The notes under the pieces were generated by a model. The model searched no databases and was not told the DNA's origin. It saw only the letters and a program-made list of their open reading frames with translations. Positions 1 to 13,547 of a DNA stretch of 16,665 nt are shown here, piece after piece. The number at the start of each line of letters is the position of its first letter. Positions within the stretch are counted from its first letter, which is position 1. The stretch comes from Solirubrobacteraceae bacterium. Lineage in GTDB: Bacteria; Actinomycetota; Thermoleophilia; Solirubrobacterales; Solirubrobacteraceae. Location of the stretch: assembly GCA_030149625.1 (NCBI GenBank), contig JASLHP010000267.1:1-16665 (forward strand), in the 5' to 3' direction. A program made the translations under genes and the position numbers.

Positions 1-710
1 GCCGCCCACTCCAGAAAGCTGCTCGGCTCGCCGTCGTGAGCGATGCGCCCATCCTGCATCGCGACGACTCGGTCGGCGTAGTTGAGGCAGCGCTCGAGCC
101 GATGCTCCGCGAGCAGGATCGCCGTGTCCCACTCCTGGTTGAGACGCCGCAACAGCGCGATCAGCTCGTCGCCGGCAACGGGGTCCAGCTGCGAGGTCGG
201 CTCGTCGAGCAGCAACAGACGCGGGCGACCGGCGAGCGCCGCCCCGAGCGCAACTCGCTGCTGCTCGCCGCCGGACAGCTCATGCGTGGGACGATCGAGC
301 AGCTGATCGATGCCCAAGGCCAGGGCGACCTCCTCGACGCCACGCGCGACGGCGGTAGGCGACTGTCCACGGGTCTCGAGCGCGAGCGCGAGCTCGGAGC
401 GCACGGAGTTCATCACGAGCTGCGTCTCGGGATCCTGGAACAGCGCACCGGCGGATTCGCCGAGGCGCGCGGGCCCGTGCTCGTGCGTGTCGAGGCCGGC
501 CACGACGACCCGGCCGGAGAAGTGCCCGCCATAGAAGTGCGGCGCGAGCCCGCAGGCGGCGCGCAGGAGCGTCGACTTGCCGTGCCCCGAGAGTCCCGCG
601 AGCAGACAGAGCTCGCCCGGCTGCATCTCGAAGTCGACGTTCCGCAGCGCGGCGGAGGCCGCGCCGGGGTAGCGGTAGCTGACGCGCGCGAACGAGAGGA
701 TCGCGGTCAT
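1..710 (-). CDS. ecfA: ECF transporter ATPase subunit (EcfA/CbiO type), 3' end cut by window
   Basis: ATP-binding subunit of an energy-coupling-factor importer, acting on the cytoplasmic face of the membrane to drive vitamin or cofactor uptake. The frame is open from ATG at 708-710 to the window edge, giving 236 residues without a stop. Visible motifs are Walker A GLSGHGKS (39-46), Q-loop FQDPETQLVMNSV (91-103), signature LSGGEQQR (145-152), Walker B LLLLDEP (165-171) and H-loop AEH (201-203). The FQDPETQ form of the Q-loop is typical of EcfA/CbiO rather than other ABC ATPases. Its ATG overlaps the TGA of the EcfT gene as ATGA, so the two are probably translationally coupled. The missing C-terminus could hold a second ATPase domain, as in some actinobacterial EcfA proteins; the window cannot show this. 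The substrate is inferred from the B12 riboswitches upstream. Confidence 0.93.
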   Translation of the reverse strand, partial: MTAILSFARVSYRYPGAASAALRNVDFEMQPGELCLLAGLSGHGKSTLLRAACGLAPHFYGGHFSGRVVVAGLDTHEHGPARLGESAGALFQDPETQLVMNSVRSELALALETRGQSPTAVARGVEEVALALGIDQLLDRPTHELSGGEQQRVALGAALAGRPRLLLLDEPTSQLDPVAGDELIALLRRLNQEWDTAILLAEHRLERCLNYADRVVAMQDGRIAHDGEPSSFLEWA

Positions 711-1644
711 GGATCGATTCCTCGGCGGTCACAGAAGGGGAGCACGACGGCGAGCGCGAGCGCGGCGCAGAGCGCCAGCAGCGAGACGTCGACCGGCACG
801 CGCGCCAGCGGATAGGCGGTGTAGGAGGCGACGTTCGTCAGCCGTCCGAGCAGCGCGAGCGCGAGGATCGCGAGCGCCGAGAGAGCGAAGGCGAAGTCGT
901 GGCGCGACCAGGGCCCGCGCGCGGCGCGGGAGGCCCGCTGGCGCGGTTCACGCGCCAGCGATCGCATCGGCAATGGCCTATGTGAGCTCGCGGCGAGGCC
1001 GCGGACCTCGAGCGTCGCGGCGACGTCCATCGCCCGGTCGAGCGAGCCGGCGACGACCGCACCGATCAGGGCCGCCCGTGCGCGAGCGCCGCGCGGCGGG
1101 CCAGCGGGACGCGTGCGCTGCGCCTCGGCGAGCCGCCCAGCGTCGGCGGCGAGCAGGGGGATCATGCGCAGCGCGAGCGATGCCGTAAGGCCGGAGCGGA
1201 AAGAGAGGCGACGACAGATCCGCAGCAGCGCATCGGGGTCGATCGCGAGGCTCGAGAGCGAGGTGATGAGGATCAGGACGGTGACCTTCAACGCGATCAC
1301 GGCGCCGTAGAGGAGCGCCTCCACGGTGAGATCGCCTTGCCCGAACGGTCCGAGATCGCCGAGCCGGGCGAACACCGTGAGACCCTCGCGGCTGACGAGG
1401 ACGTTGATGAGCACGATCGGCAGCGCGACGATCGTCGCCGTGAGCAGGGCGCGCGCAAGCTCGCGCGCGACGCCCGCACCGCGGGCGGCGCCAAGGATCG
1501 CGAGAGCGAGCGCCACGAGCACGAGCGGGTGGTAGAGCAGCAGGGCCGCGGCGGTCAACGAGATCGCCCACAGGCTCGCGATCCCCGCGCGCGTGGCGTG
1601 CAGCGGGCTCGCGAGCGGACGGTAGATCAGTGACGCGACGCGAT

Positions 1645-1648
<4 letters not shown>
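707..1648 (-). CDS. ecfT: ECF transporter transmembrane subunit EcfT (CbiQ family)
   Basis: Membrane coupling subunit that links the EcfA ATPases to a substrate-binding S component. The start ATG at 1646-1648 is chosen because it overlaps the upstream TGA as ATGA; a longer open frame upstream lies antisense-like over the preceding gene and is rejected. The product is 313 residues with hydrophobic segments at about 27-53, 66-84, 110-134, 192-203, 253-270 and 287-304. The two family coupling motifs are recognisable: SLALRMIPLLAADAGRLAEA (157-176) leading into AQRTRPAG (176-183), and ATLEVRGLA (211-219). The first is normally A-x-x-x-RG, so the R-T-R-P-A-G form is slightly divergent. A basic insertion (about 230-250) lies before the last helices. 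It lies between the DUF4430 lipoprotein and EcfA genes, the expected position in an ECF operon. Confidence 0.9.
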
Positions 1649-2640
<992 letters not shown>

Positions 2641-2642
2641 GG

Positions 2643-2975
2643 CTAGGGCGTGCCCGGGCTGGCGTTGGCGGGATTCTTCTGAACGTAGACGAGCTGGCCG
2701 TTGGCGAGACGGTAGACGGTGCCGACGGGCTGACCGTGGCCGCTCGCCGATCGCGCGCCGGACGCTGGCGAGGGCAGCGTCTGCGTGTGTCGGGTGCTCG
2801 GCGTGCGCTTCTGCAAGCTGCCGGTGTGGGGGTTGAGCGTGAGCCCGAGACCGGCGATCAGGAACGCGACAGCCAATACGATGCCGATGTCGAACAGGTT
2901 GACCAGCCCGTCCAGCGGGTCGCCGGCGGCGTCTGCGATGCGGCCGTGACGGGCGAGCCCGGTGCGCCGGCTCAT
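2643..2975 (-). CDS. Small membrane protein, DUF2149-like (ExbD-like partner)
   Basis: A 110-residue protein with one membrane helix. ATG at 2973-2975 overlaps the upstream TGA as ATGA. The N-terminal DPLDGLVNLFDIGIVLAVAF (19-38) gives one transmembrane segment with Asp29 at its cytoplasmic edge. This resembles the helix of ExbD/TolR, where a conserved Asp takes part in proton flow. After a Ser/Thr/Pro-rich linker (50-80) the C-terminus PVGTVYRLANGQLVYVQKNP (83-102) looks like a small beta element. The combination fits DUF2149, a family I recall as often lying beside MotA/TolQ/ExbB proteins in archaeal cobalt/corrin-related loci. Assignment is from motif memory, not a search. Here it directly follows an ExbB-like gene, supporting a two-part proton-channel complex. 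Confidence 0.7.
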   Translation of the reverse strand: MSRRTGLARHGRIADAAGDPLDGLVNLFDIGIVLAVAFLIAGLGLTLNPHTGSLQKRTPSTRHTQTLPSPASGARSASGHGQPVGTVYRLANGQLVYVQKNPANASPGTP

Positions 2976-3574
2976 CGTGACGCGGCGCGCTCCAGCGCGG
3001 TCAGGTCTTCGGTGTACAGCCGGGTGCGAATCAAGGTGAGCGCGAAGGCGACGGTGCCGACCAGCAGGCCGACGGTGGTGGCGGCGAAGGCGGTTCGCAA
3101 GTCCGTCGCCAGGGTCGCGACATCGCCGTGGCCAAGCGCGGCCAGCCCAGGGGCCAGCGGGATCAGGGTGCCCATCAAGCCGAGCGCCGGCCCGGCCCGC
3201 ACGAGTATCCGCGTCGGGTCGAGGCGTCGCTGCACCGCCAGCTCGAAATCGGCGAGCGCGTTCTCGATCCCGCCGGCGTGACCGGCGAGAACGGCGCGCG
3301 CGATCTGCACGAGCGCGTCGCCCGCGAACGAGCTGGGAGCGCGCTGCGAGAGCGCGGCGGCCTGGCCGGGATCGGCCAGCACCTGGCTGACGAGCACGCG
3401 TAGAGCGCCACGGCCCGCGCGCGCGCGCGACCACAACTCTGTGGCGAAGCGCCCCGCCTCGAGGGCGCACGCGAGCAGTGCAAGCAACGCGAGGATCAGC
3501 ACGGGAGTGCGCAGCGCCGAGGCGATCTGTGCGAGCGCTTCGGCGATGCCGCCTGTCGCGGCGAGCACGCTCAC
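2972..3574 (-). CDS. MotA/TolQ/ExbB proton-channel family protein
   Basis: A 200-residue membrane protein of the MotA/TolQ/ExbB superfamily, which forms proton-conducting stators that energise other proteins. The start is GTG at 3572-3574, overlapping the upstream TGA as GTGA; no ATG is closer. Three membrane segments are visible at about 23-40, 127-147 and 163-183, with a cytoplasmic stretch between the first two. The diagnostic second-helix region VRAGPALGLMGTLIPLAPGL (125-144) and the third-helix TAFAATTVGLLVGTVAFA (161-178) match the ExbB pattern of a Gly-rich G-x-x-GT-L helix and a Thr-Thr-x-GL-x-x-G helix. It sits between the anchored toroid gene and the DUF2149-like gene. No TonB-like gene is seen, and a monoderm would not be expected to have an outer-membrane receptor, so its partner here is unknown. 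Confidence 0.83.
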   Translation of the reverse strand: MSVLAATGGIAEALAQIASALRTPVLILALLALLACALEAGRFATELWSRARAGRGALRVLVSQVLADPGQAAALSQRAPSSFAGDALVQIARAVLAGHAGGIENALADFELAVQRRLDPTRILVRAGPALGLMGTLIPLAPGLAALGHGDVATLATDLRTAFAATTVGLLVGTVAFALTLIRTRLYTEDLTALERAASR

Positions 3575-5127
3575 AGGACCACCTGCCGGCGCCTGCGCTC
3601 CAGCAGGGAGCCGGCGAAGGCGAGCAGCGTCGCCGCGAGCGCGATCGCCAGCGACAGCCCCTGTTCGCCGCCGACCGCGGCGCTGCGCAGGCCGGGCGCG
3701 CCGCGTGCGAGGGCGCTCCGATAGCTCGCGTTCGAGGTACCTCCGATCACGATGCCTTTGACGTCATGCCCGCCGGCCTGTGGGGAGCGGCCGCGCTTGG
3801 CGGCACGCTTGTTGGCGTGACGCACCGCGCCAGGCGCTTCGGCGGTGACGGTGGCAACAGGTTCTGTTCGTGCCGCGCCCGGGTTGCGGCGATGCTTGCC
3901 GGCGCGCGTCTTGGCGCGATGCGCGAGCAGCCGCACGCCGCCGGGCGTTTCCCCTTTGCTCTGTGGCTGGGGGCGACTGAACAGCGCGGCGCCGTTGCCG
4001 CCGCCGCCCGCGAGCACGCCGGACCCCGAGCTCGGAGGCGTGCTCGGCACTTCGCGCGGCACCGCCGGTATCGGCTGCGCTTGGCCGGCGAACGCCGGTG
4101 CGACCTGTGCCGTCATCCACAGCCCGTTCTCTTCTGCGCTTGCCTTGTAGCGGATGTGGCCGTCGGGCTGTTGCAGTGTTTCGAGATAGGAAAGCGGTTC
4201 GTGGCCTTCGCTCGTGAGCCAGTCTTCCGGATTCTCTGCGGCCGACCACATCCCCTGGACCGCCCAGGCGGTGGACGCGACGTTCGCTTCGCCTTCCCCG
4301 GCGAACTCCGGGAAACCGCCGTCGGGCAGTTGAGCTTCGCGCAGGTATCCGAAGGCATGTGCCTGCGCCTGCTCGATTTCCGCCTTCTGGAGTTCGGTGA
4401 CATGCAGGTTGGGGGCGTTGAGCGCCTCGATCGCCGCGCCCGTCATGTCGACTTCGCCTTCGCCTTCGGCTCTTGGGTGCAGGGTGGGCCAGCTGCCGTC
4501 GGGGTTCTGCGCGCTCAGCAGCCACATCACGCCGCTCGCGAGCGCTTCCTGCGTTGCTTGCCCGGGGACGAGGCTCAGCGCGAGGACCGCATAGATCGTG
4601 TCGTTGACTTCGCCGTTGCCCCCTGGCACGAACGGAAACGAGCCGTCGGCGAGTTTTCGGGCGAGAAGTTCGCCGACGAGATCGATCCCGCCGAAGTCAT
4701 CGGGCGAGGTCCCGGACGCGTCGACCACGAGCAGTTCGCGCTCGAGGGAAGTCGTGCAGATGGTCGGCCTGCAGAGTTCTTCGTGCAGAGCCGTAGCCGC
4801 GTGATCGGCGAGGTAGTCATATGCGTCCACGCCGCCAGGCCGCCGCTGGTCCTGAGGGTTGATCCCCGCGGCCGCGAGCGCGAACGCCACCCAGGCGCTG
4901 ACGTCCTGATTGGATTCTTCACCGGCATTCAGACCGAAGCCGCCGTTCATGTTCTGGGCGTTCTGCAGATAGCGCACCGTGCTGTCGAGCCGCTTTTCGT
5001 TCGTCGCGTTGTCCGGCTTGGCGACAGCGCCGTCAGCCGCCCAGCCAGCGAGCAGGGCACACAGAACGACCGCGCCCGCCAGCGACCCGACGAGCGGCCG
5101 GATCCTAGGCTTCGACCGCCACACCAT
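3571..5127 (-). CDS. Secreted, C-terminally anchored alpha/alpha-toroid (prenyltransferase/squalene-oxidase repeat) protein
   Basis: A 518-residue surface protein. Residues 10-36 form a signal peptide. Residues 45-345 carry repeated toroid helices with the family hallmark of a Gly-Gly/Gly-Ser-Phe/Trp turn after each helix pair: QNMNGGFG (58-65), LADGSFPF (159-166), QNPDGSWP (207-214), QLPDGGFPEF (266-275) and QQPDGHIRY (319-327). The same fold forms the N-terminal part of intrinsic factor and transcobalamin. No DUF4430-like domain follows. Instead there is a Pro/Gly/Ser linker (350-385), a basic stretch (395-450), one membrane helix (about 489-507) and an RRRR tail (511-514), so the C-terminus is probably retained in the membrane. 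Cys119 and Cys124 could pair. It overlaps the upstream DUF4430-like gene by 23 bases. The likely role is corrinoid capture at the surface; an enzymatic cyclase role is unlikely because it is secreted and no DxDD-type motif is seen. Confidence 0.82.
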   Translation of the reverse strand: MVWRSKPRIRPLVGSLAGAVVLCALLAGWAADGAVAKPDNATNEKRLDSTVRYLQNAQNMNGGFGLNAGEESNQDVSAWVAFALAAAGINPQDQRRPGGVDAYDYLADHAATALHEELCRPTICTTSLERELLVVDASGTSPDDFGGIDLVGELLARKLADGSFPFVPGGNGEVNDTIYAVLALSLVPGQATQEALASGVMWLLSAQNPDGSWPTLHPRAEGEGEVDMTGAAIEALNAPNLHVTELQKAEIEQAQAHAFGYLREAQLPDGGFPEFAGEGEANVASTAWAVQGMWSAAENPEDWLTSEGHEPLSYLETLQQPDGHIRYKASAEENGLWMTAQVAPAFAGQAQPIPAVPREVPSTPPSSGSGVLAGGGGNGAALFSRPQPQSKGETPGGVRLLAHRAKTRAGKHRRNPGAARTEPVATVTAEAPGAVRHANKRAAKRGRSPQAGGHDVKGIVIGGTSNASYRSALARGAPGLRSAAVGGEQGLSLAIALAATLLAFAGSLLERRRRQVVL

Positions 5128-6802
5128 CCAACTCGGCCGTTCCGTGCAGCACGCGCAGGCTCACCGTCCCCTTGCCGGTCCGCCGTGCGGCCGCGAGGGC
5201 CCGTGACGATCCGCCGGAGCCGCCGGCGATCGAGAACACCTGCCGATGAGCGCCCGAGCGCACTTCGACCCGAGCACCGTGCGCGCTCGCGCGCAGCAGG
5301 AACACGGGACGGCCGGCGGCCAGCGTCGCGGAGACCGTTGCTCCGGCACCGCCGCTGCTGAGCGTTCCCATCCAGGCTCCCGCGACGGTGGCTCGGCGCC
5401 AGGCGCCTCGATAGCGCAGGCCCCCCCAGCGGTCGTCGAACGGCACCAGAACCTTCCCGATCGCCGTCGTCGAGCTGCGACCCAGGGCGTCCGTGATCGT
5501 CAGCTGAAGCTGATAAGCGCAGCCGGGCGGAAGCTCGAGCAGCGCAGCGGTGGCGCCGGTCCCGGAGGCGCGCGTGACGTAGCCCGCCGCGCCGGCGCCC
5601 AGGGTCTTGGAGGAGATCGTCCAGCTCTCGATGCCGACGCCGGCTTCGAGCACGCGCCAGCTCACGCCGATCAGGCCGTGGGCTGCGCCCAGCCCGTCCA
5701 CGACTGGAGCCTGCAGGCGCACGTGCCCGAGATCGGCTTCTGAGAAACCGGCGACGCCGCCATTGCCGGTGTTGCCGCCAGTCGTATTCGTGGCTGGGGT
5801 TTCGTCTGTGCTTTCGGGCTCGGTGCTGGTCGGTTCATGTCCGCTTTCCGGTTCTCCGTGGTTGCCTTCGGGAGCTTCGCCGCCGGCCTGGATGTAAGCG
5901 GGGCTGCGCACCTCGTCTTCCGCGGGAGGCGCCCCACAGCCGGGTTCGCCCTTCGGTGGCACGCAGATGTCCAGGCGATTCGAGCGGATTGCTTCTTCTT
6001 CGTCGCTCGAGCCGATCAGGGTTGCCTTGATGCGGTGCCATCCCGGTTCGTCGAAGGTCAGGACGGCCTTGCCGCCGGCGCCGGTCTCGACCGTTGACGG
6101 GCTGCTCGTGTCGAGCTTCTCGAAACCCTTTTCGCTGGTCTGCACGGGTGAGACGTCGGCGCCTTCGAAGGGGGTCGAGCCAGTGCGTTCGGGGTGTGGC
6201 GGCGGTGCGTCTTCCCTGTCGTCGCCGTAGTCGAGCACTTCGACTTCGAACGGCTTGCCGAGTTCCGCGGTCGCTGTCAACGGACGCGTGCCCGACGTGT
6301 CGCCCGCCGGATAGAGCGCGAGGAACGGGCGACGTTCGAATGCGTCAAAGGTCCACAGGACTTCGTCGCCATCGCTCAGCTCGTATTGGCAGCCGCCCAC
6401 GTTCGTGAAGACGTTGTTGACGAGGACGCCCCAATACCAGCCCTTTTCGAGATCCTCTTCGCCGGGGCCCCAGCGAGTGATGAAATAGTCTTCGTAGTCG
6501 GAGTACCACTGGCCGTCGAAGGTTTCGCCGATCAGCCCCATCGCGTCGACCGAGGCCGCCGTGGGCGTAGCGCCGGGCTCGGTGTTCTGCGGATCGTTGA
6601 CGTCGATCCCGTCGCACGAGCGTTCCTTCGTGTCCGAGGATGCTTTGACCTTGTGACCTTCGGTCAGGATCGGCCCTTCGAACAACGTCTGTTCGCGACC
6701 CTCGATTCTGACGTTGACCTCAGTCGCGGCTCCCTGGGCGATGCCGGACAGGCAGATGGTGATGGCGGCGGCGACGCCGAGGGTCGCTTTGATGCGGCGC
6801 AT
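5105..6802 (-). CDS. Secreted DUF4430-like protein with long linker and C-terminal beta-rich domain
   Basis: A 565-residue exported protein, the first gene after the internal cobalamin riboswitch. ATG at 6800-6802 is chosen because a signal peptide (1-25) starts there and an upstream GGAAAGGGG can serve as ribosome site; longer frames run into the riboswitch. Residues 26-165 resemble a DUF4430/transcobalamin-like beta domain with FDGQWYSDYEDYFITRW (95-111) and DGDEVLWTFDAF (144-155); Cys63 and Cys138 may form a disulfide. Residues 175-280 look like an Ig-like module. A Glu/Thr/Asn/Gly-rich low-complexity linker spans about 300-352. Residues 355-565 form a beta-rich domain I do not recognise. 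The first 280 residues are clearly paralogous to the protein at 8596-9297. It probably works with the toroid protein whose start overlaps its last codons. Confidence 0.77.
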   Translation of the reverse strand: MRRIKATLGVAAAITICLSGIAQGAATEVNVRIEGREQTLFEGPILTEGHKVKASSDTKERSCDGIDVNDPQNTEPGATPTAASVDAMGLIGETFDGQWYSDYEDYFITRWGPGEEDLEKGWYWGVLVNNVFTNVGGCQYELSDGDEVLWTFDAFERRPFLALYPAGDTSGTRPLTATAELGKPFEVEVLDYGDDREDAPPPHPERTGSTPFEGADVSPVQTSEKGFEKLDTSSPSTVETGAGGKAVLTFDEPGWHRIKATLIGSSDEEEAIRSNRLDICVPPKGEPGCGAPPAEDEVRSPAYIQAGGEAPEGNHGEPESGHEPTSTEPESTDETPATNTTGGNTGNGGVAGFSEADLGHVRLQAPVVDGLGAAHGLIGVSWRVLEAGVGIESWTISSKTLGAGAAGYVTRASGTGATAALLELPPGCAYQLQLTITDALGRSSTTAIGKVLVPFDDRWGGLRYRGAWRRATVAGAWMGTLSSGGAGATVSATLAAGRPVFLLRASAHGARVEVRSGAHRQVFSIAGGSGGSSRALAAARRTGKGTVSLRVLHGTAELDGVAVEA

Positions 6803-6844
6803 ATGCCTTCTGCCCCTTTCCGCGAGGGCGATCGACGGTTGGGG

Positions 6845-7005
6845 ATCGGAGGGAGGTCTCCTGGCTTCCGAGGCTCTCGTCGCGCCTTCCCGGCCCTGCG
6901 TGGCCAGTGGCTGCCGTGTGGCGTGCGGCGGGCGTGCTGCTCGGTCACAGTGGCGGGCCCGCGCCGGTCTCTCACCGGCTTCCCTGTCCACCGATCCTCT
7001 TGCCT
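6845..7005 (-). ncRNA. Cobalamin riboswitch (leader of the 5105-6802 gene and ECF operon)
   Basis: On the minus strand the leader contains the classic adenosylcobalamin-type elements in order. These are GGGAAGCCGGTGAGAGACC (about 6966-6984), a GC-rich stem, the B12-box core GCCACTGTG (6946-6954), a variable domain with GCAGCCACTGG, and the conserved 3' closing element GCCAGGAGACC (6855-6865). The pyrimidine run CTCCCTCC just after the aptamer could pair with the downstream ribosome site GGAAAGGGG, consistent with translational control; no poly-U terminator is seen. The start codon lies about 50 bases from the aptamer end. It sits inside a co-directional gene series, so the downstream transporter operon is regulated separately from, or in addition to, the first riboswitch. 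Confidence 0.93.
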
Positions 7006-7016
7006 TTACTCGCCGC

Positions 7017-7022
7017 AGTCTA
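7017..7022 (-). promoter_or_regulatory. Possible -10 element ahead of the internal riboswitch
   Basis: TAGACT on the minus strand lies about 10 bases before the start of riboswitch-like sequence, a suitable spacing for a promoter. No convincing -35 is present, so this is a weak call. Read-through from the 7050-8444 gene is the alternative. Confidence 0.25.
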
Positions 7023-7049: not shown

Positions 7050-8444
7050 CTAGCCCAGCCGCAGGTAGATCGTGTCTCCCAAGCCGATGGCACTGGTGGC
7101 CTTGGCAAGCTTTTCGGGACCTCCGTCGATGCTGATCTCCCATTTGGGCTGCGCGGGACTGGGCGCGCCGTCGATCGAAGTGATCGCGCCCTTGCCCGTC
7201 GCCGGGGTGAAGCCGGTCACGCACGACGAAGGCGTCGAAGCCGTCTCCGCGGCTTCGAGCACCTCGACGAGCTTCGTCTTGGACGCTTCGGGCGCGATCT
7301 CGACCGCGCACACGTCCAGCGAGCCCGTGCCGTCCTCGACGATCAGCGTCAGCAGACCGTCGACGCCCGGATTCGGGTCGAAGCTCTTTTCAGCCTCCCA
7401 CCGTGGAGCGCGCTTCGCCTTCGGTGGCGCGGGCGTGAAGCCGCCCCCGGCGAGCGCGCGCACGGCGTCCTGACTCGAGTACTCGTCCGCGACCTTTTCG
7501 CTCGCCAGATACTTGAAGGCGCCGCCGGCAAGCTGCTGAGAGATCAGGAAGTCGATCGGCGTCCTGCCCGCCGGGGTCGTGAATTCGGGTCCCTGCGGGT
7601 TGACCGCGCACGTGTCCAACCCCTCCACCGCCCACGCGTTGGAGTCCGTGTTGGCGCCGAGTTCCGAGGCGAACGCGCCGGTCGCGGGCACGAGCAGCGA
7701 ATGCAGGTATGCGCGGGCTTTGACGATCGCCGGATCGCTTGCGGAGACGCCCGCTCCGCACAGCGCCGCGATCGCGGCGCCGGTCATGTCCGGTTCGGCC
7801 ACCGATTTGAGCGCTTTTTCGTTGCCTTCGACCTTCTGGTAGTTCCAGCCGCCGTCGGCGTGCTGGTTCTTGCGGAGCGCTTCGACCGAAGCGTTCAGCA
7901 GCACCTGCGGAACACGCTGCGCGCCCTTCGTCGTCTTCGCGCCCTCCAGCGCGAGCAGCGCGAAAACGGTGCCGTTGAATAGTCCGGGCGTGCCGTAGTA
8001 CCCAGGGCTCGTCGCCTGGTAGCGCGCCGCTATCTGTGCGATCAGGTTCTGCGTCTGGGAGACACGCGCCGGATCGATGCCCGCCGCGTAGGCGATCAGC
8101 GACGCGCGCTCGAATTCGCTGACGGGGGCGTTCTCTTCTTCGGGCCAGGTTTCGGTGTCGCCGATCAGCCCCCGATACCAAGCGCGGGCGTCTGTCGAGC
8201 CCGCGGCCTCACTGACATTGGCGGCGGCGGTGCCGGCGGCGGCGAACGAGGTAAGCGACCAGCCGCCGCCGGATCCCGGGATTTCGCCGTCGGGCAGCTG
8301 CAGCGATGCCAGGTAAGCCACGCCGTTGGTCGTGGCGGTCTCGATTTCGCCGCCGGATGAGGTGGCGAGCGCGGCCGGAGCGGCCAGACACACGCCACAT
8401 GCACCCAGCGCGAGGAGTGTGAGCAAGCGGCGTAGTGGTCGCAT
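7050..8444 (-). CDS. Secreted transcobalamin-like protein: alpha/alpha toroid plus C-terminal beta domain
   Basis: A 464-residue exported protein with the overall layout of vertebrate intrinsic factor/transcobalamin. Signal peptide 1-28 ends ALA-TSS. Residues 32-335 carry toroid repeats: LQLPDGEIPGSGGGW (48-62), NQHADGGWNY (193-202), EPDMTGAAIAALCGAG (217-232), ANTDSNAWAVEGLDTC (264-279) and YSSQDAVRALAGGGF (322-336). Residues 360-464 form a DUF4430-like beta domain, ending WEISIDGGPEKLAKATSAIG (435-454) then LGDTIYLRLG. Cysteine pairs 229/279 and 379/408 are conserved in the paralogue at 9422-10819. The start ATG 8442-8444 follows AAAGGAG at 11 bases; an in-frame upstream ATG would add 11 residues before the signal peptide. 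Squalene or terpene cyclase activity is unlikely given secretion and the added beta domain. Corrinoid binding is inferred from architecture and the B12 riboswitches. Confidence 0.83.
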   Translation of the reverse strand: MRPLRRLLTLLALGACGVCLAAPAALATSSGGEIETATTNGVAYLASLQLPDGEIPGSGGGWSLTSFAAAGTAAANVSEAAGSTDARAWYRGLIGDTETWPEEENAPVSEFERASLIAYAAGIDPARVSQTQNLIAQIAARYQATSPGYYGTPGLFNGTVFALLALEGAKTTKGAQRVPQVLLNASVEALRKNQHADGGWNYQKVEGNEKALKSVAEPDMTGAAIAALCGAGVSASDPAIVKARAYLHSLLVPATGAFASELGANTDSNAWAVEGLDTCAVNPQGPEFTTPAGRTPIDFLISQQLAGGAFKYLASEKVADEYSSQDAVRALAGGGFTPAPPKAKRAPRWEAEKSFDPNPGVDGLLTLIVEDGTGSLDVCAVEIAPEASKTKLVEVLEAAETASTPSSCVTGFTPATGKGAITSIDGAPSPAQPKWEISIDGGPEKLAKATSAIGLGDTIYLRLG

Positions 8445-8535
8445 GATGATCGGCGCTCCTTTCGGTCGTGACGGCATCTAGGCTGAGCCCGCTCGTATCT
8501 TGACCAAAGACCGCTCGACTCGAGCTCGCTCAGCC

Positions 8536-8569
8536 GATGGTGAGAGGGATCGAGCGCCCTCTCACCATC
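8536..8569. terminator. Perfect 13-bp hairpin between two genes (possible terminator or operator)
   Basis: GATGGTGAGAGGG (8536-8548) and CCCTCTCACCATC (8557-8569) form a perfect stem with an 8-base loop, 27 bases after the stop codon of the 8596-9297 gene. No T-run follows on either strand, so it is not a textbook intrinsic terminator. It may be a weak actinobacterial-type terminator, an RNA-stabilising stem, or a protein-binding palindrome ahead of 7050-8444. Confidence 0.5.
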
Positions 8570-8595
8570 CAGGCTCCGAGCAGTCCGCGGATCGT

Positions 8596-9297
8596 CTAGA
8601 GAACGACGACCAGCAGTCCGTTCGAACGGACCGATTCGCTCTTCGTGGCCTTCAATCGCTGCACTCCGACATGCGTAAAGGTCACGGCCGCTTCGCCGTT
8701 GCCGTTGGTGCTCGCCCCGTCGACCATGGCGCCGGCGATCGGTGCGCCGTCCGAGCCTTCGGTCACTTTGACGGTGACGGGATGGCCGACCGTCGCGACG
8801 TGGGGACCGCTGAGCTTGAGGAAGTGTTCCGCGTTGAAGGCATCGAACGCCCACAGCACTTCCTCGCCGTTGTGCAGCGCGAACTGGCACCCGCCGTCCG
8901 GGATGAATTCGTAGTTGACGAGAGTTCCCCAGAATTCATCAGTCGCTTCGTTCTGGCTTGTTTCGGCGATGCGCGAGACGAAGAAGTCTTCGTATTCGGA
9001 AGACCATTCGCCGTCGAAAGAGAATTTGCTGCGTTCGGCCGCATCCGCGAGCGCCGCCGTCGGCACCGGAACCGCTCCTGGGTTCGCGCCATGATTGGTG
9101 CCGTTGCACTCGTGGGTCCCGCCGGATTCCGTGGTGACGCTGCGTCCTTCGACCAGGAGCGGCCCTTCGAAGATCGTCCGCGTGGCGCCCTCGATGCGCA
9201 TCTTGACGAGCACCGGCGTCGCCGAAGCAGTGCCTGCTGCGATCGCGAGTGCGCAGATCGCCGCCGCCGTCGGTCCTGCGATGTACTTGAGTCTCAT
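8596..9297 (-). CDS. Small secreted DUF4430-like protein
   Basis: A 233-residue exported protein. ATG at 9295-9297 follows a good ribosome site (GAGGAAGGA, about 7 bases away) and starts a signal peptide (1-26, cleavage near TASA-TP). Residues 27-165 align by eye with the N-terminal part of the 5105-6802 protein. Shared elements are RIEGATRTIFEGPLLVEG (34-51) against RIEGREQTLFEGPILTEG, FDGEWSSEYEDFFVSRI (94-110), and NGEEVLWAFDAF (143-154). The cysteines at 64 and 137 match those of the longer paralogue. Residues 166-233 form the Ig-like module, ending VRSNGLLVVVL; the linker and C-terminal domain of the paralogue are absent. It lies between the two transcobalamin-like genes and probably shares their transcript. 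It may be a soluble corrinoid-binding or partner module; function is inferred only. Confidence 0.75.
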   Translation of the reverse strand: MRLKYIAGPTAAAICALAIAAGTASATPVLVKMRIEGATRTIFEGPLLVEGRSVTTESGGTHECNGTNHGANPGAVPVPTAALADAAERSKFSFDGEWSSEYEDFFVSRIAETSQNEATDEFWGTLVNYEFIPDGGCQFALHNGEEVLWAFDAFNAEHFLKLSGPHVATVGHPVTVKVTEGSDGAPIAGAMVDGASTNGNGEAAVTFTHVGVQRLKATKSESVRSNGLLVVVL

Positions 9298-9421
9298 TTC
9301 CAAATCCTTCCTCTCTATCTGGGGTCTCTCGCGGACATCCGATCGTGTCTGCACTCGCCTCAGGCCGCCGACGTCCGGTCCCACGTGATGCGGTGCGGGA
9401 CCAGCCAGCCGGCTCCTGCTG

Positions 9422-10819
9422 TCAGGTGTAGCGCAGGTAGATCGTGTCGCCTAGATGAATCGCGGTTGTCAGCGTGGCTTGTTTTTCGGCGCCGCCGTCG
9501 ATGCTGTAGTCCCACAGCGCTTTGGGCGTCGACGGGAATCCGTCGATCTGGGTGATAGCGCCACTTTCGGCCGCGTGTCCGGTCACGCAGCTCGCGGGCG
9601 ACGAGCCCGCTTCGGCAGCGAGCAGAACCTTTTCGAGCGTTACCGTTTCGGCTTCGGCCGTCGTGGACGACACCGACACCGAGCAGATCTTCAGCGCTTC
9701 GCTTTCGTTGTTGATGATCAACATCAACGGGCTTTTCGCCGTTTTGGTGAAGCCCGATTCCGCTACCCATTGTGGGGGTTTGGGGCTACCCGTCGGCAGC
9801 GGCGGCGAGACGCTGAAGCCGGCGCCGGCCAGCGCGCGAACCGCGTCCTGGCTCGCGTATTCGTTTGCTCCTTCTTTCGCCGGCGATTCCCGGAACGCCC
9901 CGAGGGGGCTCGCCAGCTGCTGGGCGATTATGAAGTCGATCGGCGTTTTACCCGCGGAGGTCGTGAATTCCGTGCCCTGCGGTTCGATTTTGCAGGCGTC
10001 GAGGCCTTGCACCGCCCAGGAGCTTGAGTCCGTGTTTTCCCCGAATTCGTATTCGAAGCCGCCGGTCGCTTTGATCAGTATCGACTTCAGGTAGGCCTCG
10101 CCGCTTTTGACCGCTTCGTTGGATGCCGGGGTGGCGCCGGTGGCGCACAGCGCGGCCATCGCGGCACCCGTCATGTCGGGTTCGGCGCCGGCTTTGCGCT
10201 TGGTTTCGTTGCCTTCGACCTTTTCCCAGCTCCAGCCGCCGTCGGTGTGCTGGTTTTTTTCGATCACTTCGACCGTCTTTTTCAGCAGCGCGTTCGGGAC
10301 GCGCTGCACGCCGCTCTCGGTCTTTGCCTGGGTGAACGCGAGGAGCGCGAACACGGTTCCGTTGAAGTTCCCCGGGGGACCGTAGTAGCCGGGGCTCGTC
10401 GGTTCGTAGAAGGAGGCGATTCCCGCGAACACGTTCTGCGTTTTGGAGAACCGAGCCGGGTCGATGCCGGCCGCATAGCCCACGAGCGCCGCCCGCTCGT
10501 ATTCGGTCACGATCGCTTTTTCCGGCCATTTCGTGGCGGTCAGGTTGCCCACCAGTTTCTGATACCAGGACCGCGCGTCGGTTTCGGCGCCGGCGATCTT
10601 GAGGTTCGCCGCCGCGACGCCGGCCGCCGCGATCGAGTCGAGGTCCCAGTCACCCGCAAAGCCGCCGGTGCTTTTCTGCAGCCCCTCGAGATATTCCGCA
10701 CCTTTGGTCTTTGCGTGCAGGATCGCTTCCGCCGAGGAGGTCGCCAAGGCCGATGACGGCGTCAGCAGTGCCCAGATGCCAATCGCAAGGGAGGCGAGCC
10801 GCCAGGTCAAACTACGCAT
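9422..10819 (-). CDS. Secreted transcobalamin-like protein: alpha/alpha toroid plus C-terminal beta domain (paralogue)
   Basis: A 465-residue exported protein, first gene behind the minus-strand cobalamin riboswitch. ATG at 10817-10819 has AAGGAG nine bases upstream. Signal peptide 1-27 ends ALA-TSS. Toroid repeats fill 32-335: LQKSTGGFAGDWDLDSIAAA (47-66), NQHTDGGWSWEKVEGNE (189-205), EPDMTGAAMAALC (213-225), SSSWAVQGLDAC (265-276) and YASQDAVRALAGAGF (321-335). The beta domain covers 360-465 and ends with LWDYSIDGGAEKQATLTTAI (435-454) then HLGDTIYLRYT. Cys225/276 and Cys379/411 are conserved with the 7050-8444 protein, and the two are colinear throughout. The toroid-plus-DUF4430 layout is that of B12-binding intrinsic factor/transcobalamin, so extracellular cobalamin capture is the best reading. 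Codons favour GAA and AAA more than the flanking housekeeping genes. Confidence 0.84.
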   Translation of the reverse strand: MRSLTWRLASLAIGIWALLTPSSALATSSAEAILHAKTKGAEYLEGLQKSTGGFAGDWDLDSIAAAGVAAANLKIAGAETDARSWYQKLVGNLTATKWPEKAIVTEYERAALVGYAAGIDPARFSKTQNVFAGIASFYEPTSPGYYGPPGNFNGTVFALLAFTQAKTESGVQRVPNALLKKTVEVIEKNQHTDGGWSWEKVEGNETKRKAGAEPDMTGAAMAALCATGATPASNEAVKSGEAYLKSILIKATGGFEYEFGENTDSSSWAVQGLDACKIEPQGTEFTTSAGKTPIDFIIAQQLASPLGAFRESPAKEGANEYASQDAVRALAGAGFSVSPPLPTGSPKPPQWVAESGFTKTAKSPLMLIINNESEALKICSVSVSSTTAEAETVTLEKVLLAAEAGSSPASCVTGHAAESGAITQIDGFPSTPKALWDYSIDGGAEKQATLTTAIHLGDTIYLRYT

Positions 10820-10842
10820 GGGATGGAACTCCTTCTTGTAGG

Positions 10843-10864
10843 GGACGGGAGGCGATCTCCGTCC
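10843..10864 (-). promoter_or_regulatory. Leader hairpin just ahead of the ribosome site (possible expression platform)
   Basis: On the minus strand GGACGGAG and CTCCCGTCC can pair (one bulged C, five-base loop) a few bases before the AAGGAG ribosome site of the 9422-10819 gene. It lies between the aptamer and the start codon and could form part of the switching structure. No U-run follows. Confidence 0.35.
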
Positions 10865-10924
10865 GCTCGAGAAGCAGCGAGGCGATCAAGACCTAACCGT
10901 CCGTTCGCGAGAACAGGGTCCGTA

Positions 10925-11040
10925 TGTTTGGCGTCAAGCAACGAGTATTCGGACTCAGGCCGAGCCGCTTCGCGCGAAGCGACCCGCCTACACCGTTGCG
11001 CGTCAGTCCCGGATTCCCACCGGGTTCCCTCGATTGCGAG
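10925..11040 (-). ncRNA. Cobalamin riboswitch (leader of the 9422-10819 gene)
   Basis: The minus strand shows the actinobacterial form of the cobalamin aptamer. Elements are GGGAACCCGGTGGGAATCC (11011-11029), then GGGACTGACGCGCAACGGTG (about 10991-11010) as the B12-box region, a hairpin GGTCGCTTCGCGCGAAGCGG, and the 3' element GAGTCCGAATACTCG (10942-10956). The sequence type differs from the other two riboswitches in the window, whose box reads GCCACTGTG. It is preceded by a well-spaced promoter and followed by about 100 bases of leader before the start codon. It probably represses the three secreted-protein genes downstream when cobalamin is plentiful. Confidence 0.92.
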
Positions 11041-11049
11041 ACGGCCCGG

Positions 11050-11078
11050 ACAATAGCGCTTGCGATCAGCTCAGGCAA
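11050..11078 (-). promoter_or_regulatory. Promoter for the minus-strand riboswitch transcript
   Basis: TTGCCT (-35, 11073-11078) and TATTGT (-10, 11050-11055) are separated by exactly 17 bases on the minus strand. Predicted start of transcription near 11043 is immediately ahead of the riboswitch. Confidence 0.6.
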
Positions 11079-11081
11079 GCA

Positions 11082-11136
11082 GGGCCCACCGGGCCACGCT
11101 AAGCGGGCCCTCGGGCTACGCCAAGCAAGGCCCGCT
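11082..11136. repeat. GC-rich inverted repeats between the divergent riboswitches
   Basis: Two potential stems lie here. GGCCC-ACC-GGGCC is at 11083-11095. AGCGGGCC (11102-11109) pairs with GGCCCGCT (11129-11136). They lie upstream of both divergent leaders, at or just beyond the minus-strand -35 element. They could bind a regulator or insulate the two transcripts. Confidence 0.4.
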
Positions 11137-11146
11137 GGAGCTGCGT

Positions 11147-11152
11147 TATGCT
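11147..11152 (+). promoter_or_regulatory. Possible -10 element for the plus-strand riboswitch
   Basis: TATGCT lies about 10 bases ahead of the riboswitch-like sequence. No recognisable -35 is present at 16-18 bases, so the call is weak. Confidence 0.25.
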
Positions 11153-11159
11153 GCGGGAC

Positions 11160-11325
11160 GACTATCGACGGGTCGGTGGACGGGGAAGCCGGTGAAAGAC
11201 CGGCGCGGGCCCGCCACTGTGATCGAGCATCGCCCCGCCACGCGCCGCTCCGCGGCAGCCACTGGCCCTCACGGGCTGGGAAGGCGTGGCGGGATGCCTC
11301 GAAAGCCAGGAGACCTCCCTCCGAC
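11160..11325 (+). ncRNA. Cobalamin riboswitch (leader of the beta-propeller/collagen-like gene)
   Basis: Elements in order are GGTCGGTGGACGGGGAAGCC (11171-11190) leading into GCCGGTGAAAGACCGG (11188-11203), the B12 box GCCACTGTG (11213-11221), GCAGCCACTGG, and the 3' closing GCCAGGAGACC (11305-11315). The core is nearly identical to the riboswitch at 6845-7005. The run CCTCCCTCC after the aptamer is complementary in part to the downstream GGAAAGGGG ribosome site, which suggests translational control. The start codon is about 45 bases away. This places a secreted structural-looking protein under B12 control. Confidence 0.93.
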
Positions 11326-11363
11326 CCCTCCCATCTAGCACCCTCGTGGAAAGGGGTACCCGG

Positions 11364-13547
11364 ATGTCTCAGCACAAATTGGCCCGCGCGCGGCCGCTCG
11401 ATCTCGGCGCGCTGGTGGTGCTCGCGCCGCTGGTGCTCGCGCTCACGATGCTCGGACTGTCGTGTTTCGCGGTAAGCGCCCACGCGGCGAGCGACGAAAC
11501 CGCCGGCGAGACGTTCGCGGCCTCGATCGTGCCGGCCGGTGAATTTGCCGAAGGCGGGATCGGCGCAGCCACGTCCATCTCCGGCGACGGACGCTATGTG
11601 GCATTTCTGAGCGCCGCGGAAAACCTCGGTTGGGAAAGCCCTGCCGGCGTCAAGGAGGCCTACGTCAAGGATCTGCACACGGGCGCGCTCGAGCTCGTGA
11701 GCCGCGTGAACGGCGTGGACGGCGAACCCGCGGGCGAATCGGTCGAAGATCTCCGCATCTCCGCGGACGGGCGCTACGCGATCTTCTCGTCCACCGCCGC
11801 GAACCTCCTCGAAGGAGCTTCGCCAGAAGCAGGACTGCACGTCTACCGGCGCGACCTGAAAACCGGGGAAACCACGCTCGTGGACCGTGTGAGCGGCACA
11901 AAAGGCGCGGTCGTCACGCGCGAAGCCTACGCCGAGGCGGTCTCCGCCGACGGCCGCTACGTCGTCTTCAGCGCCGACGTCGAAGATCTCGAAAACCCCG
12001 TTGGCGCCCACGCGATCACCGGGGGGTTGACGTTGTACGTCCGCGATCTGCAAACCGGTGTCACGACGACGGTCGGTCGCGCCAGCGGTGCGGGCGGCGC
12101 GATCGCCAACGAACCGAGCATCGCGAGCTCGATCTCGCCGAACGGCCGCTACGTCGCGTTCGAAAGCGCCGCCACGAATCTCGTCCCCGGGATGAGCGCC
12201 AACACGGTCTCGCAGGTCTACCTGCGCGACCTGCAGACAGACACGACGACGCTGGTCAGCAAGACCGCGCCGAGCGGATCCGCGCCCGCCGGGGAACCGG
12301 GCAATGCCGCTTCGTCGGTGGCAGAACTCGTCGGCGACGAAGGCTGCGAGGTCGCGTTCGACTCGGAAGCGGGCAATCTCTACAGCTTCGAAGGACGGCC
12401 CGTGACCACGCCGCAGGTGTATCTGACGAACGTCTGCTCGACGCCACCGCAAACCGTCCTCATCAGCCGCGCCGACGGGGCAGCCGGCCTGCCCGCGGGC
12501 GAAGGCAACTCGGCCAGCCCGCGAGTCTTCGGGGCGAGCGCCGACGGTCGCTACATCCTGTTCAGCGCGCTCGGATCGCTGTTGAGCGAAGACACGAACA
12601 CGAGCAGGCATCTCTATCTGCGCGATCTCGAAACGAGCGAAACGACGCTCGTCGATCGCGCCACCGGTGTCGCCGGCGAAGCGGCCAACAGCAACCCCGA
12701 AGGCAGCGCGATCTCAGCCAACGGCTGTCGTGCCGTGTTCGTTACGGACGCGAGCAACCTGGTCGACCCGGAACCGCCGTTCACCGAGCGCGAGGCCTAC
12801 GTGCGCCAACTCGCCGCATGCAACGAAGAACCGACGATGACGCCCACGAGCGTCGAGCTCGGCGCGCAGGCGCTCGACACGCTCGGCGCCGCGCACACGA
12901 TCACCGTGACGGCGGGCTCCGAAGCGCTCCAGATCGAGCGCGTGCAGATCGGCGGCAACGATCCTTCGGATTTCATCGTGACCGGGGACGAATGCACCGG
13001 AGAAACCCTGCAGCCAGAAGAAAAATGCGCGTTCACGGTGAGGTTCGTGCCCAGCGCCGCGGGAGCGCGATCGGCGTCGCTGGCGCTGCGCACGGCGCCC
13101 ACCACCGAGCTCGACGTGAGCCTGGCGGGCGAAGGCGGCCAGCTCCCCGCTGGCGAAAAAGGCGGCCCGGGAGCAGCCGGCAGGGAAGGCGCGCCGGGTC
13201 AACAGGGCGCTCCCGGCCAGCAGGGCGCTCCCGGCCAGCAGGGCCCCGCCGGCCAGCAGGGCGCCGCCGGTTCCAAAGGCGAACGGGGCGCGCGCGGACC
13301 CGCCGGATCTGACGCGAAAGTGACGTGCAGGCTCGCCAAGAATGCGCGCAAGATCACATGCGCGGTGACGTTCGAGGGCAGGAAGTCCAGCTGGGCCGCA
13401 CGAGCGAGACTGACGAGACGCGGGCGTACCTACGCGATTGGCCTGCTCGCGGACCTGCACGCCGCGCGGGCGATCGGGCATGGCACATACGTGCTGCACC
13501 TGAGCATCGGCGGGCGCAACCTCGCCCTGCAGGTGATGCTGCGTTGA
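11364..13547 (+). CDS. Secreted beta-propeller protein with anchor-D-like and collagen-like domains
   Basis: A 727-residue exported protein. ATG at 11364 follows GGAAAGGGG and starts a signal peptide (1-42, ending AHA-AS); an earlier in-frame ATG lies inside the riboswitch. Seven propeller repeats with the S-x-S-x-D-GRYVAF pattern occur near 71, 131, 192, 257, 322, 390 and 449, each followed by a YVRDLxTGxTTLVSR-like strand, as in PD40/TolB-type propellers. Residues 492-590 resemble a choice-of-anchor-D/ASH-type beta domain (GGNDPSDFIVTGDECTG, 530-546; PEEKCAFTVRFVPSAAG, 551-567). Residues 597-650 are Gly-x-y collagen-like repeats, including three APGQQG units. The basic tail (651-727) has Cys655 and Cys666. 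Such multi-domain proteins are common in Solirubrobacterales, to my recollection; control by a cobalamin riboswitch is unexpected. Function is unknown; surface binding or scaffolding is a guess. Confidence 0.85.
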   Translation: MSQHKLARARPLDLGALVVLAPLVLALTMLGLSCFAVSAHAASDETAGETFAASIVPAGEFAEGGIGAATSISGDGRYVAFLSAAENLGWESPAGVKEAYVKDLHTGALELVSRVNGVDGEPAGESVEDLRISADGRYAIFSSTAANLLEGASPEAGLHVYRRDLKTGETTLVDRVSGTKGAVVTREAYAEAVSADGRYVVFSADVEDLENPVGAHAITGGLTLYVRDLQTGVTTTVGRASGAGGAIANEPSIASSISPNGRYVAFESAATNLVPGMSANTVSQVYLRDLQTDTTTLVSKTAPSGSAPAGEPGNAASSVAELVGDEGCEVAFDSEAGNLYSFEGRPVTTPQVYLTNVCSTPPQTVLISRADGAAGLPAGEGNSASPRVFGASADGRYILFSALGSLLSEDTNTSRHLYLRDLETSETTLVDRATGVAGEAANSNPEGSAISANGCRAVFVTDASNLVDPEPPFTEREAYVRQLAACNEEPTMTPTSVELGAQALDTLGAAHTITVTAGSEALQIERVQIGGNDPSDFIVTGDECTGETLQPEEKCAFTVRFVPSAAGARSASLALRTAPTTELDVSLAGEGGQLPAGEKGGPGAAGREGAPGQQGAPGQQGAPGQQGPAGQQGAAGSKGERGARGPAGSDAKVTCRLAKNARKITCAVTFEGRKSSWAARARLTRRGRTYAIGLLADLHAARAIGHGTYVLHLSIGGRNLALQVMLR
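13190..13262 (+). repeat. 18-bp tandem repeat encoding collagen-like APGQQG units
   Basis: Near-identical 18-base units (core GGCGCTCCCGGCCAGCAG) recur three to four times and encode Ala-Pro-Gly-Gln-Gln-Gly. The third and fourth copies diverge toward GPAGQQ. Expansion or contraction would keep the reading frame. Confidence 0.8.

What the first reader, a model, noticed from the sequence alone, without database searches (positions are those of the whole stretch)
1..13547. Candidate complete cobalamin-capture system in a Gram-positive bacterium: transcobalamin-like surface proteins, ExbB/DUF2149 pair and ECF transporter under three B12 riboswitches
Three cobalamin riboswitches, two toroid-plus-beta-domain secreted proteins, a membrane-anchored toroid, three further DUF4430-like proteins, a proton-channel pair and EcfT/EcfA lie in one cluster. 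The riboswitches tie all of it to B12. Toroid plus DUF4430 is the fold pair of intrinsic factor and transcobalamin. The inference is surface binding, then lipoprotein hand-over, then ECF import, possibly energised by proton flow. I know DUF4430 proteins near ECF genes in other Gram-positives, but not this full set.
Basis: partly seen in the sequence, partly recalled or inferred. Interest (0 to 1): 0.85.

Follow-up and report, generated by a model that had tools for sequence, protein, structure and literature searches.

The report
Motor-linked vitamin B12 capture gene cluster
A soil-type bacterium carries, under vitamin-B12-sensing RNA switches, genes for secreted proteins predicted to fold like our own B12 carriers together with a B12-type importer and a proton-motor-like gene pair, which suggests that such bacteria may capture B12 on their surface with a motor-coupled binding protein.

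Summary
The window (Solirubrobacteraceae-like) holds two cobalamin riboswitches above Rfam's threshold and one just below, two toroid+beta proteins, an anchored toroid, three DUF4430 proteins, ExbB+DUF2149 and EcfT/EcfA. A model of one toroid+beta protein (pLDDT 85) has transcobalamin, intrinsic factor and haptocorrin as its first 15 PDB matches. The gene set recurs: 13 of 22 close ExbB hits in 18 genomes have a cobalamin riboswitch within 12 kb, against 0 of 9 lower-scoring hits; relatives supply the S component that the window's edge cuts off. Toroid+ECF loci without ExbB are an existing actinobacterial theme (SCO2321 family). New is the motor: ExbB/DUF2149 usually follow a secreted protein with a C-terminal membrane helix ending in glutamate (53 of 55 by fixed rule). 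Toroids have this glutamate in 13 of 16 cases with ExbB in the locus, 0 of 9 without. The pair also sits in heme-like, PBP-type ABC and CobN loci. Best reading: B12 capture by transcobalamin-like surface proteins, ECF import, with an ExbB-type motor docked on the toroid's tail. Binding, proton flow and docking are inferred, not shown.

The parts
3..710 (-). ecfA, ECF ATPase, cut by the window edge
   Evidence: ABC_tran 88.2 bits; best NCBIfam model ECF_ATPase_1 164 bits, below its cut-off 315
707..1648 (-). ecfT (CbiQ family)
   Evidence: PF02361 61.1 bits; start set at the 4-base overlap with the lipoprotein gene
1645..2640 (-). DUF4430 lipoprotein (lipobox-like LLLGGC; motif recalled)
   Evidence: PF14478 59.6 bits
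2643..2975 (-). DUF2149: one TM helix with an Asp that is invariant in 29 aligned members, short C-terminal part
   Evidence: PF09919 41.8 bits; alignment A6
2972..3574 (-). ExbB/TolQ-family protein
   Evidence: PF01618 30.7 bits; shared ExbB/TolQ residues
3571..5127 (-). torC: toroid with C-terminal TM and Glu-Arg tail (...AFAGSLLERRRRQVVL)
   Evidence: PF00432 44.2 bits; SCO2321_fam 75.1 bits, cut-off 300; tail
5105..6802 (-). large secreted DUF4430 protein
   Evidence: PF14478 28.3 bits; start read
6834..7022 (-). cobalamin riboswitch of the core operon
   Evidence: RF00174 67.3 bits
7050..8477 (-). torB: secreted toroid + beta domain
   Evidence: 55% identical to torA in A5
8596..9297 (-). 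small secreted DUF4430 protein (ORF opens at 9384; likely ATG at 9297)
   Evidence: PF14478 20.9 bits, E 4.9e-4, just under cut-off
9422..10819 (-). torA: secreted toroid + beta domain, transcobalamin-like fold
   Evidence: AF2 pLDDT 85.3, pTM 0.86; Foldseek ranks 1-15 B12 carriers
10923..11053 (-). probable cobalamin riboswitch upstream of torA
   Evidence: RF00174 30.0 bits, E 4.7e-5, gathering 31.5
11137..11336 (+). cobalamin riboswitch of the divergent gene
   Evidence: RF00174 73.5 bits
11364..13547 (+). secreted PD40 propeller + collagen repeats + ~85-aa C-terminal module
   Evidence: PD40 40.8 bits, Collagen 30.3 bits; module also in other loci

Best explanation
This is a corrinoid capture and import locus, controlled by B12 riboswitches, of a Solirubrobacterales bacterium. 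Secreted two-domain proteins (torA, torB) of transcobalamin-like fold and DUF4430 proteins bind corrinoid outside the cell; a membrane-anchored toroid (torC) and a DUF4430 lipoprotein take it over at the membrane; an ECF transporter (EcfT, EcfA, an S component expected beyond the window edge) imports it. ExbB plus DUF2149 form an ExbB/ExbD-like stator, and torC's C-terminal helix with its glutamate docks on it, so that ion flow moves the ectodomain, to release the tightly held ligand or to pass it on through the envelope. Shown here: gene set, gene overlaps, riboswitches, recurrence, predicted fold of torA, recurrent Glu tail, conserved Asp. Inferred: ligand, hand-over order, docking, ion flow, force.
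For: RF00174 sites upstream of the torA, large DUF4430 and propeller genes. The first 15 of 580 Foldseek matches of torA are transcobalamin, intrinsic factor and haptocorrin, E 7.3e-9 to 1.7e-6, aligned over both domains; cyclases follow from rank 16. Riboswitch, torC and ExbB-DUF2149 occur together, in varied order, in L004, L005, L112-L115, L119, L121, L122, L124, L127. 13 of 22 close ExbB hits in 18 genomes have a riboswitch within 12 kb against 0 of 9 lower-scoring hits (Fisher p 0.0036; 0.0044 without one truncated hit; chance about 0.026 riboswitches per locus). S component next to EcfA in L122 and L004. Tail Glu: 53 of 55 upstream proteins by fixed rule; TM-tailed toroids 13 of 16 with ExbB in the locus against 0 of 9 without (p 1e-4). 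DUF2149 directly follows 94 of 100 ExbB domains. ExbB keeps eight positions shared with E. coli ExbB and TolQ in 100 of 100 sequences.
Confidence: 0.58

Rival explanations
1. Same B12 capture locus, but ExbB/DUF2149 is not a force-transducing motor for capture: it only anchors or assembles the surface protein, or serves as an ion leak or sensor.
For: No outer-membrane transporter is expected in this group (recalled), so there is no obvious TonB-type task; toroid + ECF loci L161-L168 show no ExbB; the E. coli pore Glu is not conserved; three toroids of ExbB loci lack the tail Glu.
Against: Tight gene coupling and near-constant pairing of ExbB with DUF2149 (94 of 100); channel-type residues kept in ExbB; invariant TM Asp in DUF2149.
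Confidence: 0.25
2. The locus takes up cobalt, heme or another tetrapyrrole rather than B12; the riboswitch only coordinates it with B12 status.
For: Relatives of the module sit with heme-type genes in Patulibacter L001 and with CobN-DUF2162 in L173; EcfT belongs to Pfam's cobalt-transport family.
Against: B12-carrier fold of torA; the heme-like loci L001 and L002 show no riboswitch while the DUF4430-torC loci have it; no CobN, CbiM or CbiN among the 14 window proteins scanned.
Confidence: 0.1
3. torA, torB and torC are terpene-cyclase-like or glycan-acting enzymes of the surface, not carriers.
Against: The best two-domain matches are B12 carriers; secretion signals and riboswitch control do not fit cyclases. 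Cyclase active-site motifs were not tested.
Confidence: 0.05

Closest known systems
SCO2321-family toroid + EcfT/EcfA loci of other Actinobacteria (NCBIfam NF053823)
   Same: Toroid with C-terminal TM next to EcfT and EcfA (L161-L168); weak cobalamin riboswitch in 3 of the 9 loci searched (L164, L167, L168)
   Different: No ExbB/DUF2149 found in the stretches fetched and no tail glutamate (0 of 9, L161-L169); the window's torC scores 75.1 bits against the family cut-off 300
ECF-CbrT B12 transporter of Lactobacillus delbrueckii (PMC5997447, passages seen) and a protein named 'additional lipoprotein component of putative cobalamin ECF transporter' in Lacticaseibacillus (PMC9963975, passages seen; that it is a DUF4430 protein is my inference)
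   Same: ECF module, and a lipoprotein, in a B12 setting
   Different: No toroid+beta carriers, anchored toroid or ExbB pair in the passages seen
Vertebrate transcobalamin / intrinsic factor / haptocorrin
   Same: Alpha-toroid followed by beta domain in one chain
   Different: 12-15% identity; no match to their sequence family; relative domain placement differs in the model
Bacteroidota Hmu system HmuS-HmuT-HmuU-HmuV (PMC13227078 and PMC10434189, passages seen)
   Same: ExbB-like HmuU and DUF2149 HmuV stand in one operon with a membrane-anchored extracytoplasmic protein (HmuS, with a C-terminal TM)
   Different: There the anchored protein is a CobN-like chelatase and there is a TonB-dependent receptor; PMC13227078 says HmuV has no homology to any known family
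TonB-ExbB-ExbD / Tol-Pal
   Same: ExbB-family protein; one-TM partner with a TM Asp; third protein with one TM helix
   Different: The third protein would be the ligand-binding ectodomain itself; DUF2149 lacks ExbD's long periplasmic domain and gives no Pfam ExbD match

Membership tests
Cobalamin riboswitch (RF00174) | Score above the Rfam gathering threshold, 31.5 bits | tested here: met
   73.5 and 67.3 bits; the third site, 30.0 bits, does not meet it
Transcobalamin/intrinsic factor/haptocorrin | alpha-toroid + C-terminal beta domain in one chain | tested here: met
   torA model and Foldseek ranks 1-15; torB only by 55% identity
Transcobalamin/intrinsic factor/haptocorrin | Match to the carriers' own sequence family (Pfam PF01122, accession recalled) or to their PDB sequences by profile | tested here: not met
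   No such hit for torA, torB or torC at E up to 1; the torA profile finds 9 PDB sequences, all squalene-hopene or related cyclases
Transcobalamin/intrinsic factor/haptocorrin | High-affinity corrinoid binding | not testable with these tools
   needs purified protein
ECF transporter | EcfT and EcfA | tested here: met
   CbiQ 61.1 bits, ABC_tran 88.2 bits; EcfA is cut by the edge
ECF transporter | S component | tested here: inconclusive
   None found in the window; present between EcfA and ExbB in L122 and after EcfA in L004
ExbB/TolQ proton channel family | Pfam MotA_ExbB above cut-off and core residues | tested here: met
   30.7 against 22.9 bits; P129, G132, L133, G135, T136, A162, T166, G169 shared. 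The E. coli pore Glu is replaced by Thr
ExbD/TolR | Pfam ExbD match or convincing profile homology for DUF2149 | tested here: not met
   No ExbD hit at E up to 1; hhalign probability 26% and 11%, though the Asp residues align and score 24.1 exceeds 24 controls (highest 17.1)
TonB system | TonB and an outer-membrane receptor | not tested
   no whole genome held for the window
SCO2321 family (NF053823) | Score above 300 bits | tested here: not met
   torC 75.1 bits
HmuS/CobN-ExbB-DUF2149 systems | CobN-like chelatase beside ExbB-DUF2149 | tested here: not met
   No CobN match among the 14 window proteins scanned; ExbB and DUF2149 themselves present

The most novel reading that the evidence does not exclude
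ExbB-DUF2149 is a second kind of ExbB-type energiser, working also in bacteria without an outer membrane and used by several uptake systems. Its TonB-equivalent is the substrate-binding ectodomain itself (transcobalamin-like toroid for B12, PKD protein for PBP-dependent ABC importers, CobN-like chelatase in other lineages), plugged into the motor by a C-terminal helix ending in a conserved glutamate.
Probability: 0.33. Interest if true: 0.9.

Novelty: new variant of a known kind. Interest (0 to 1): 0.73.

Why it matters
How Gram-positive bacteria pick up B12 outside the membrane is poorly known (recalled). A bacterial two-domain protein whose nearest solved structures are the vertebrate B12 carriers, under B12 riboswitches and beside an ECF transporter, makes that question testable. 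An ExbB-type motor tied to capture without an outer membrane would widen what this motor class is thought to be for, and the Glu-tail and TM-Asp signatures give precise mutants and a way to find further such systems, including for the unexplained HmuU/HmuV proteins of Bacteroidota.

Tried and rejected
Considered and rejected: ordinary terpene cyclase cluster (the best two-domain matches are B12 carriers); cobalt ECF (CbiMNQO) locus (no CbiM or CbiN among the proteins scanned); defence system with an ExbB-like protein (no PADLOC hit for ExbB, DUF2149 or torC); a general B12 link for all ExbB/DUF2149 pairs (0 riboswitches in 8 loci L010, L016-L018, L033, L052, L056, L064; 0 of 9 lower-scoring hits in the 18 genomes).

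Led nowhere or against: the fold of the large DUF4430 protein gave no B12 carrier in the 50 rows listed. Profile search of PDB sequences with torA gave no B12 carrier, with DUF2149 nothing useful, with ExbB only weak hits, two of them MotA. DUF2149 by the Pfam model over 296 genomes of the phylum gave 7 with a match, 6 above cut-off, but misses copies that my own profile finds, e.g. in G001. A home-made riboswitch pattern (motif recalled) found the site of L005 only and was given up for Rfam. Literature: searches listed no paper whose title or abstract start treats ExbB or DUF2149 in Gram-positive B12 loci or bacterial transcobalamin-like proteins; I opened five papers, passages only (searches cover six reads of six papers in all: PMC4350170, PMC10434189, PMC9963975, PMC5997447, PMC2667541, PMC13227078). 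The library is open-access only.

Counting choices: one search looked at 100 ExbB domains (some places fetched twice, e.g. L006/L125, L007/L126, L012/L131, L019/L129, L077/L130): 60 have an upstream ORF with a TM-like end, 28 one without, 12 none nearby. The 65 tails were picked by hand: the window, 56 of the 60 (dropped: S components of L116, L122, L124, and the copy L130), 5 with weaker hydrophobicity (L012, L019, L023, L041, L074), and three toroids of the same locus that are not the adjacent ORF (L113, L122, L124). By fixed rule 55 of 58 distinct tails have the Glu; three of the 58 are those S components, two counted as having it, so 53 of 55 without them. The 28 without a TM end include out-of-frame ORFs and divergent neighbours. 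The toroid count of 13 was first made without L006, L007 and L123, whose TM-tailed toroids lack the Glu; with them it is 13 of 16; L113's helix is weakly hydrophobic. L170 and L171 (toroids without TM tail) are not in the 9, and L169 is a 5-kb contig on which no ECF gene was seen. The control of other C-terminal-TM proteins is poor: 13 proteins, of which 4 are ExbB itself; 5 have Glu, three of these looking like the same anchor class and one being the CobN of L076. One of the 9 lower-scoring ExbB hits (G185:C119) is a piece at a contig end with 66% identity, so perhaps a close copy; without it 0 of 8. Upstream and downstream sets for searches were also hand-picked. Related genomes are not independent, so Fisher values overstate.
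Full report
WHAT IS THERE. The window encodes on the minus strand, from base 10819 down: torA (toroid+beta), a small DUF4430 protein, torB (toroid+beta), a cobalamin riboswitch, a large DUF4430 protein, torC (toroid with C-terminal membrane helix), ExbB, DUF2149, a DUF4430 lipoprotein, EcfT and EcfA, the last cut by the window's edge. A second riboswitch (73.5 bits) reads rightwards into a secreted propeller protein with collagen repeats, and a third site of 30.0 bits, just under the gathering score of 31.5, lies before torA. torC/exbB, exbB/DUF2149, lipoprotein/ecfT and ecfT/ecfA overlap by 4 bases; DUF2149 and the lipoprotein gene are 2 bases apart (coordinates; starts). The named protein relatives among the best hits are Solirubrobacteraceae MAGs.

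RECURRENCE. A scan of GTDB contigs with the ExbB alignment kept 80 of 202 confirmed loci; a search of 232 genomes of one relative's order found ExbB at E up to 1e-10 in 65. In L005, L112, L114, L119, L121 and L127 the order riboswitch - DUF4430 - torC - ExbB - DUF2149 recurs. In L113 the same genes are present with ExbB-DUF2149 on the opposite strand; in L115 torC - ExbB - DUF2149 has its own riboswitch and the DUF4430 gene stands on the other strand under another. In L005, L112, L113, L114, L122, L124 and L127 a second riboswitch faces away into another toroid. In L122, and by a similar ORF end in L124, the operon reads riboswitch - DUF4430 - torC - (weak DUF4430) - EcfT - EcfA - S component - ExbB - DUF2149; L004 has EcfT - EcfA - S component - riboswitch - torC - two ExbB-DUF2149 pairs. 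The S components of L122 and L004 match only the FolT subfamily, weakly (25.6 and 27.1 bits, cut-off 60). In 18 genomes with 91 riboswitches above threshold, 13 of the 22 ExbB hits of at least 176 bits have one within 12 kb, and 0 of the 9 lower-scoring hits (150.2 bits or less) in the same genomes do; by chance about 0.026 riboswitches per locus would be expected. Of the nine close hits without one, some lie on short contigs and one (L001) is in a heme-like setting.

WHAT IS NOT NEW. In other Actinobacteria SCO2321-family toroids with a C-terminal membrane helix stand next to EcfT and EcfA: 11 of 396 genomes of the phylum sample exceed the family cut-off. Of eleven stretches with such or related toroids (L161-L171), none shows ExbB or DUF2149 by my profiles, and cobalamin riboswitches pass the threshold in 3 of the 9 searched. 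A 'lipoprotein component' of a putative cobalamin ECF transporter already exists as an annotation in lactobacilli (PMC9963975, passages), and ECF-CbrT is a characterised B12 transporter (PMC5997447, passages).

THE MOTOR MODULE. DUF2149 directly follows 94 of 100 ExbB domains examined (some places were fetched twice). Besides the B12 loci the pair occurs behind PKD-domain proteins (23 of 33 hand-picked upstream proteins), with PBP_like_2 proteins further upstream (13 of 30) and ABC permeases and ATPases downstream (8 and 4 of 28); behind a toroid and before a fusion of a heme-degrading-type (HugZ-like, name recalled) and a periplasmic-binding domain, FecCD and an ABC ATPase in Patulibacter (L001); and behind CobN-DUF2162 in L173. 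In Bacteroidota the same two families are HmuU and HmuV of the heme system (PMC10434189 and PMC13227078, passages), where HmuS, like the anchors here, is reported to have a C-terminal membrane helix and HmuV is said to resemble no known family.

THE TAIL. The protein before ExbB often ends in one membrane helix and a short basic tail with a glutamate at the helix end (torC: AFAGSLLERRRRQVVL). By fixed rule 55 of 58 distinct upstream tails have the Glu, 53 of 55 without ECF S components; a hand-picked set over toroid, PKD and other ectodomains gave 62 of 65. Other C-terminal-helix proteins of the same loci have it in 5 of 13 cases, but that control is poor, since 4 of the 13 are ExbB itself and several of the five look like the same class. 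The CobN-like proteins of L172-L174 end in a helix followed by GYFKES or GYFKEN. The best control is the toroids: with ExbB in the locus 13 of 16 TM-tailed toroids have the Glu, without ExbB 0 of 9 (p 1e-4, overstated by kinship). The three exceptions (L006, L007, L123) have no riboswitch and another gene between toroid and ExbB. This suggests, but does not prove, a docking helix on ExbB.

STATOR CHEMISTRY. DUF2149 has one membrane helix with an Asp present in all 29 aligned members, and in all 22 of a second set that includes CobN-type copies. hhalign sets this Asp on the ExbD/TolR Asp with P-values 7e-4 and 0.0028 but probabilities of only 26% and 11%; the second score (24.1) exceeds 20 column shuffles, one reversal and three other profiles (highest 17.1). 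ExbB keeps eight positions (P129, G132, L133, G135, T136, A162, T166, G169) shared with E. coli ExbB and TolQ in 100 of 100 sequences, but the E. coli pore Glu (E176, number recalled) is Thr. An ExbB/ExbD-like stator is therefore plausible; that it passes protons is not shown.

MECHANISM. Most likely B12 scarcity lets the riboswitch-controlled genes be expressed; torA, torB and the DUF4430 proteins bind corrinoid outside; torC and the lipoprotein receive it at the membrane; the ECF complex imports it with ATP; the ExbB-DUF2149 stator moves torC through its tail to release or pass on the ligand. Regulation, gene set, fold and signatures rest on results here; ligand, order and force are inference. 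The fold evidence and the riboswitches make B12 more likely than heme or cobalt, but the heme-type cousins show that the motor module itself is not tied to B12.

VERDICT. Real, conserved and more interesting than a list of parts: a new variant of the actinobacterial toroid-ECF B12 locus, with an ExbB-type motor module that appears to be shared by several uptake systems.

Noticed in passing
window 11364-13547; L112:14155-16359, L112:1367-3211, L005:4557-6554, L114:14287-16440, L127:6092-8221; also L058, L079: A ~85-residue C-terminal module (after collagen repeats in the window's propeller) recurs in secreted proteins of these B12-riboswitch loci, but also in L058 and L079, which are not known B12 loci; it may be a general surface-attachment module. 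A propeller homolog (136 bits, L112:1-1255) overlaps a riboswitch on its strand at L112:1067-1271.
   Followed up: partly
L015, L009, L035, L069 and others: PBP_like_2 protein - PKD-domain anchor - ExbB - DUF2149 - BPD_transp_1 permeases - ABC ATPase: an ABC importer apparently coupled to the same motor pair.
   Followed up: partly
L001:8358-14740, L002: Patulibacter: toroid - ExbB - DUF2149 - fusion of heme-degrading-type and periplasmic binding domains - FecCD - ABC ATPase; looks like heme uptake. Toroid and FecCD were checked in L001 only; in L002 only the fusion was.
   Followed up: partly
L172-L174: CobN-like - DUF2162 - ExbB - DUF2149 operons in small genomes; the CobN-like protein ends in a membrane helix with a Glu, like the anchors of the other loci (Pfam run on the L173 copy only).
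   Followed up: partly
L004:5555-7513: Two ExbB-DUF2149 pairs in tandem behind one toroid under one riboswitch in a Patulibacter MAG.
   Followed up: no
L010, L018, L052: ExbB-DUF2149 near FhuF-like ferric reductase genes (L010, L052) and a B12-dependent methionine synthase (L010, L018); no cobalamin riboswitch in 8 loci of this kind.
   Followed up: partly
L112: Four cobalamin riboswitches above threshold within 13.1 kb of one genome, around the toroid/ExbB cluster.
   Followed up: no
window 13639-16664: Ordinary neighbours: PEP mutase-family enzyme, Ada/AlkA DNA repair fusion, methyltransferase; no tRNA in the window.
   Followed up: no
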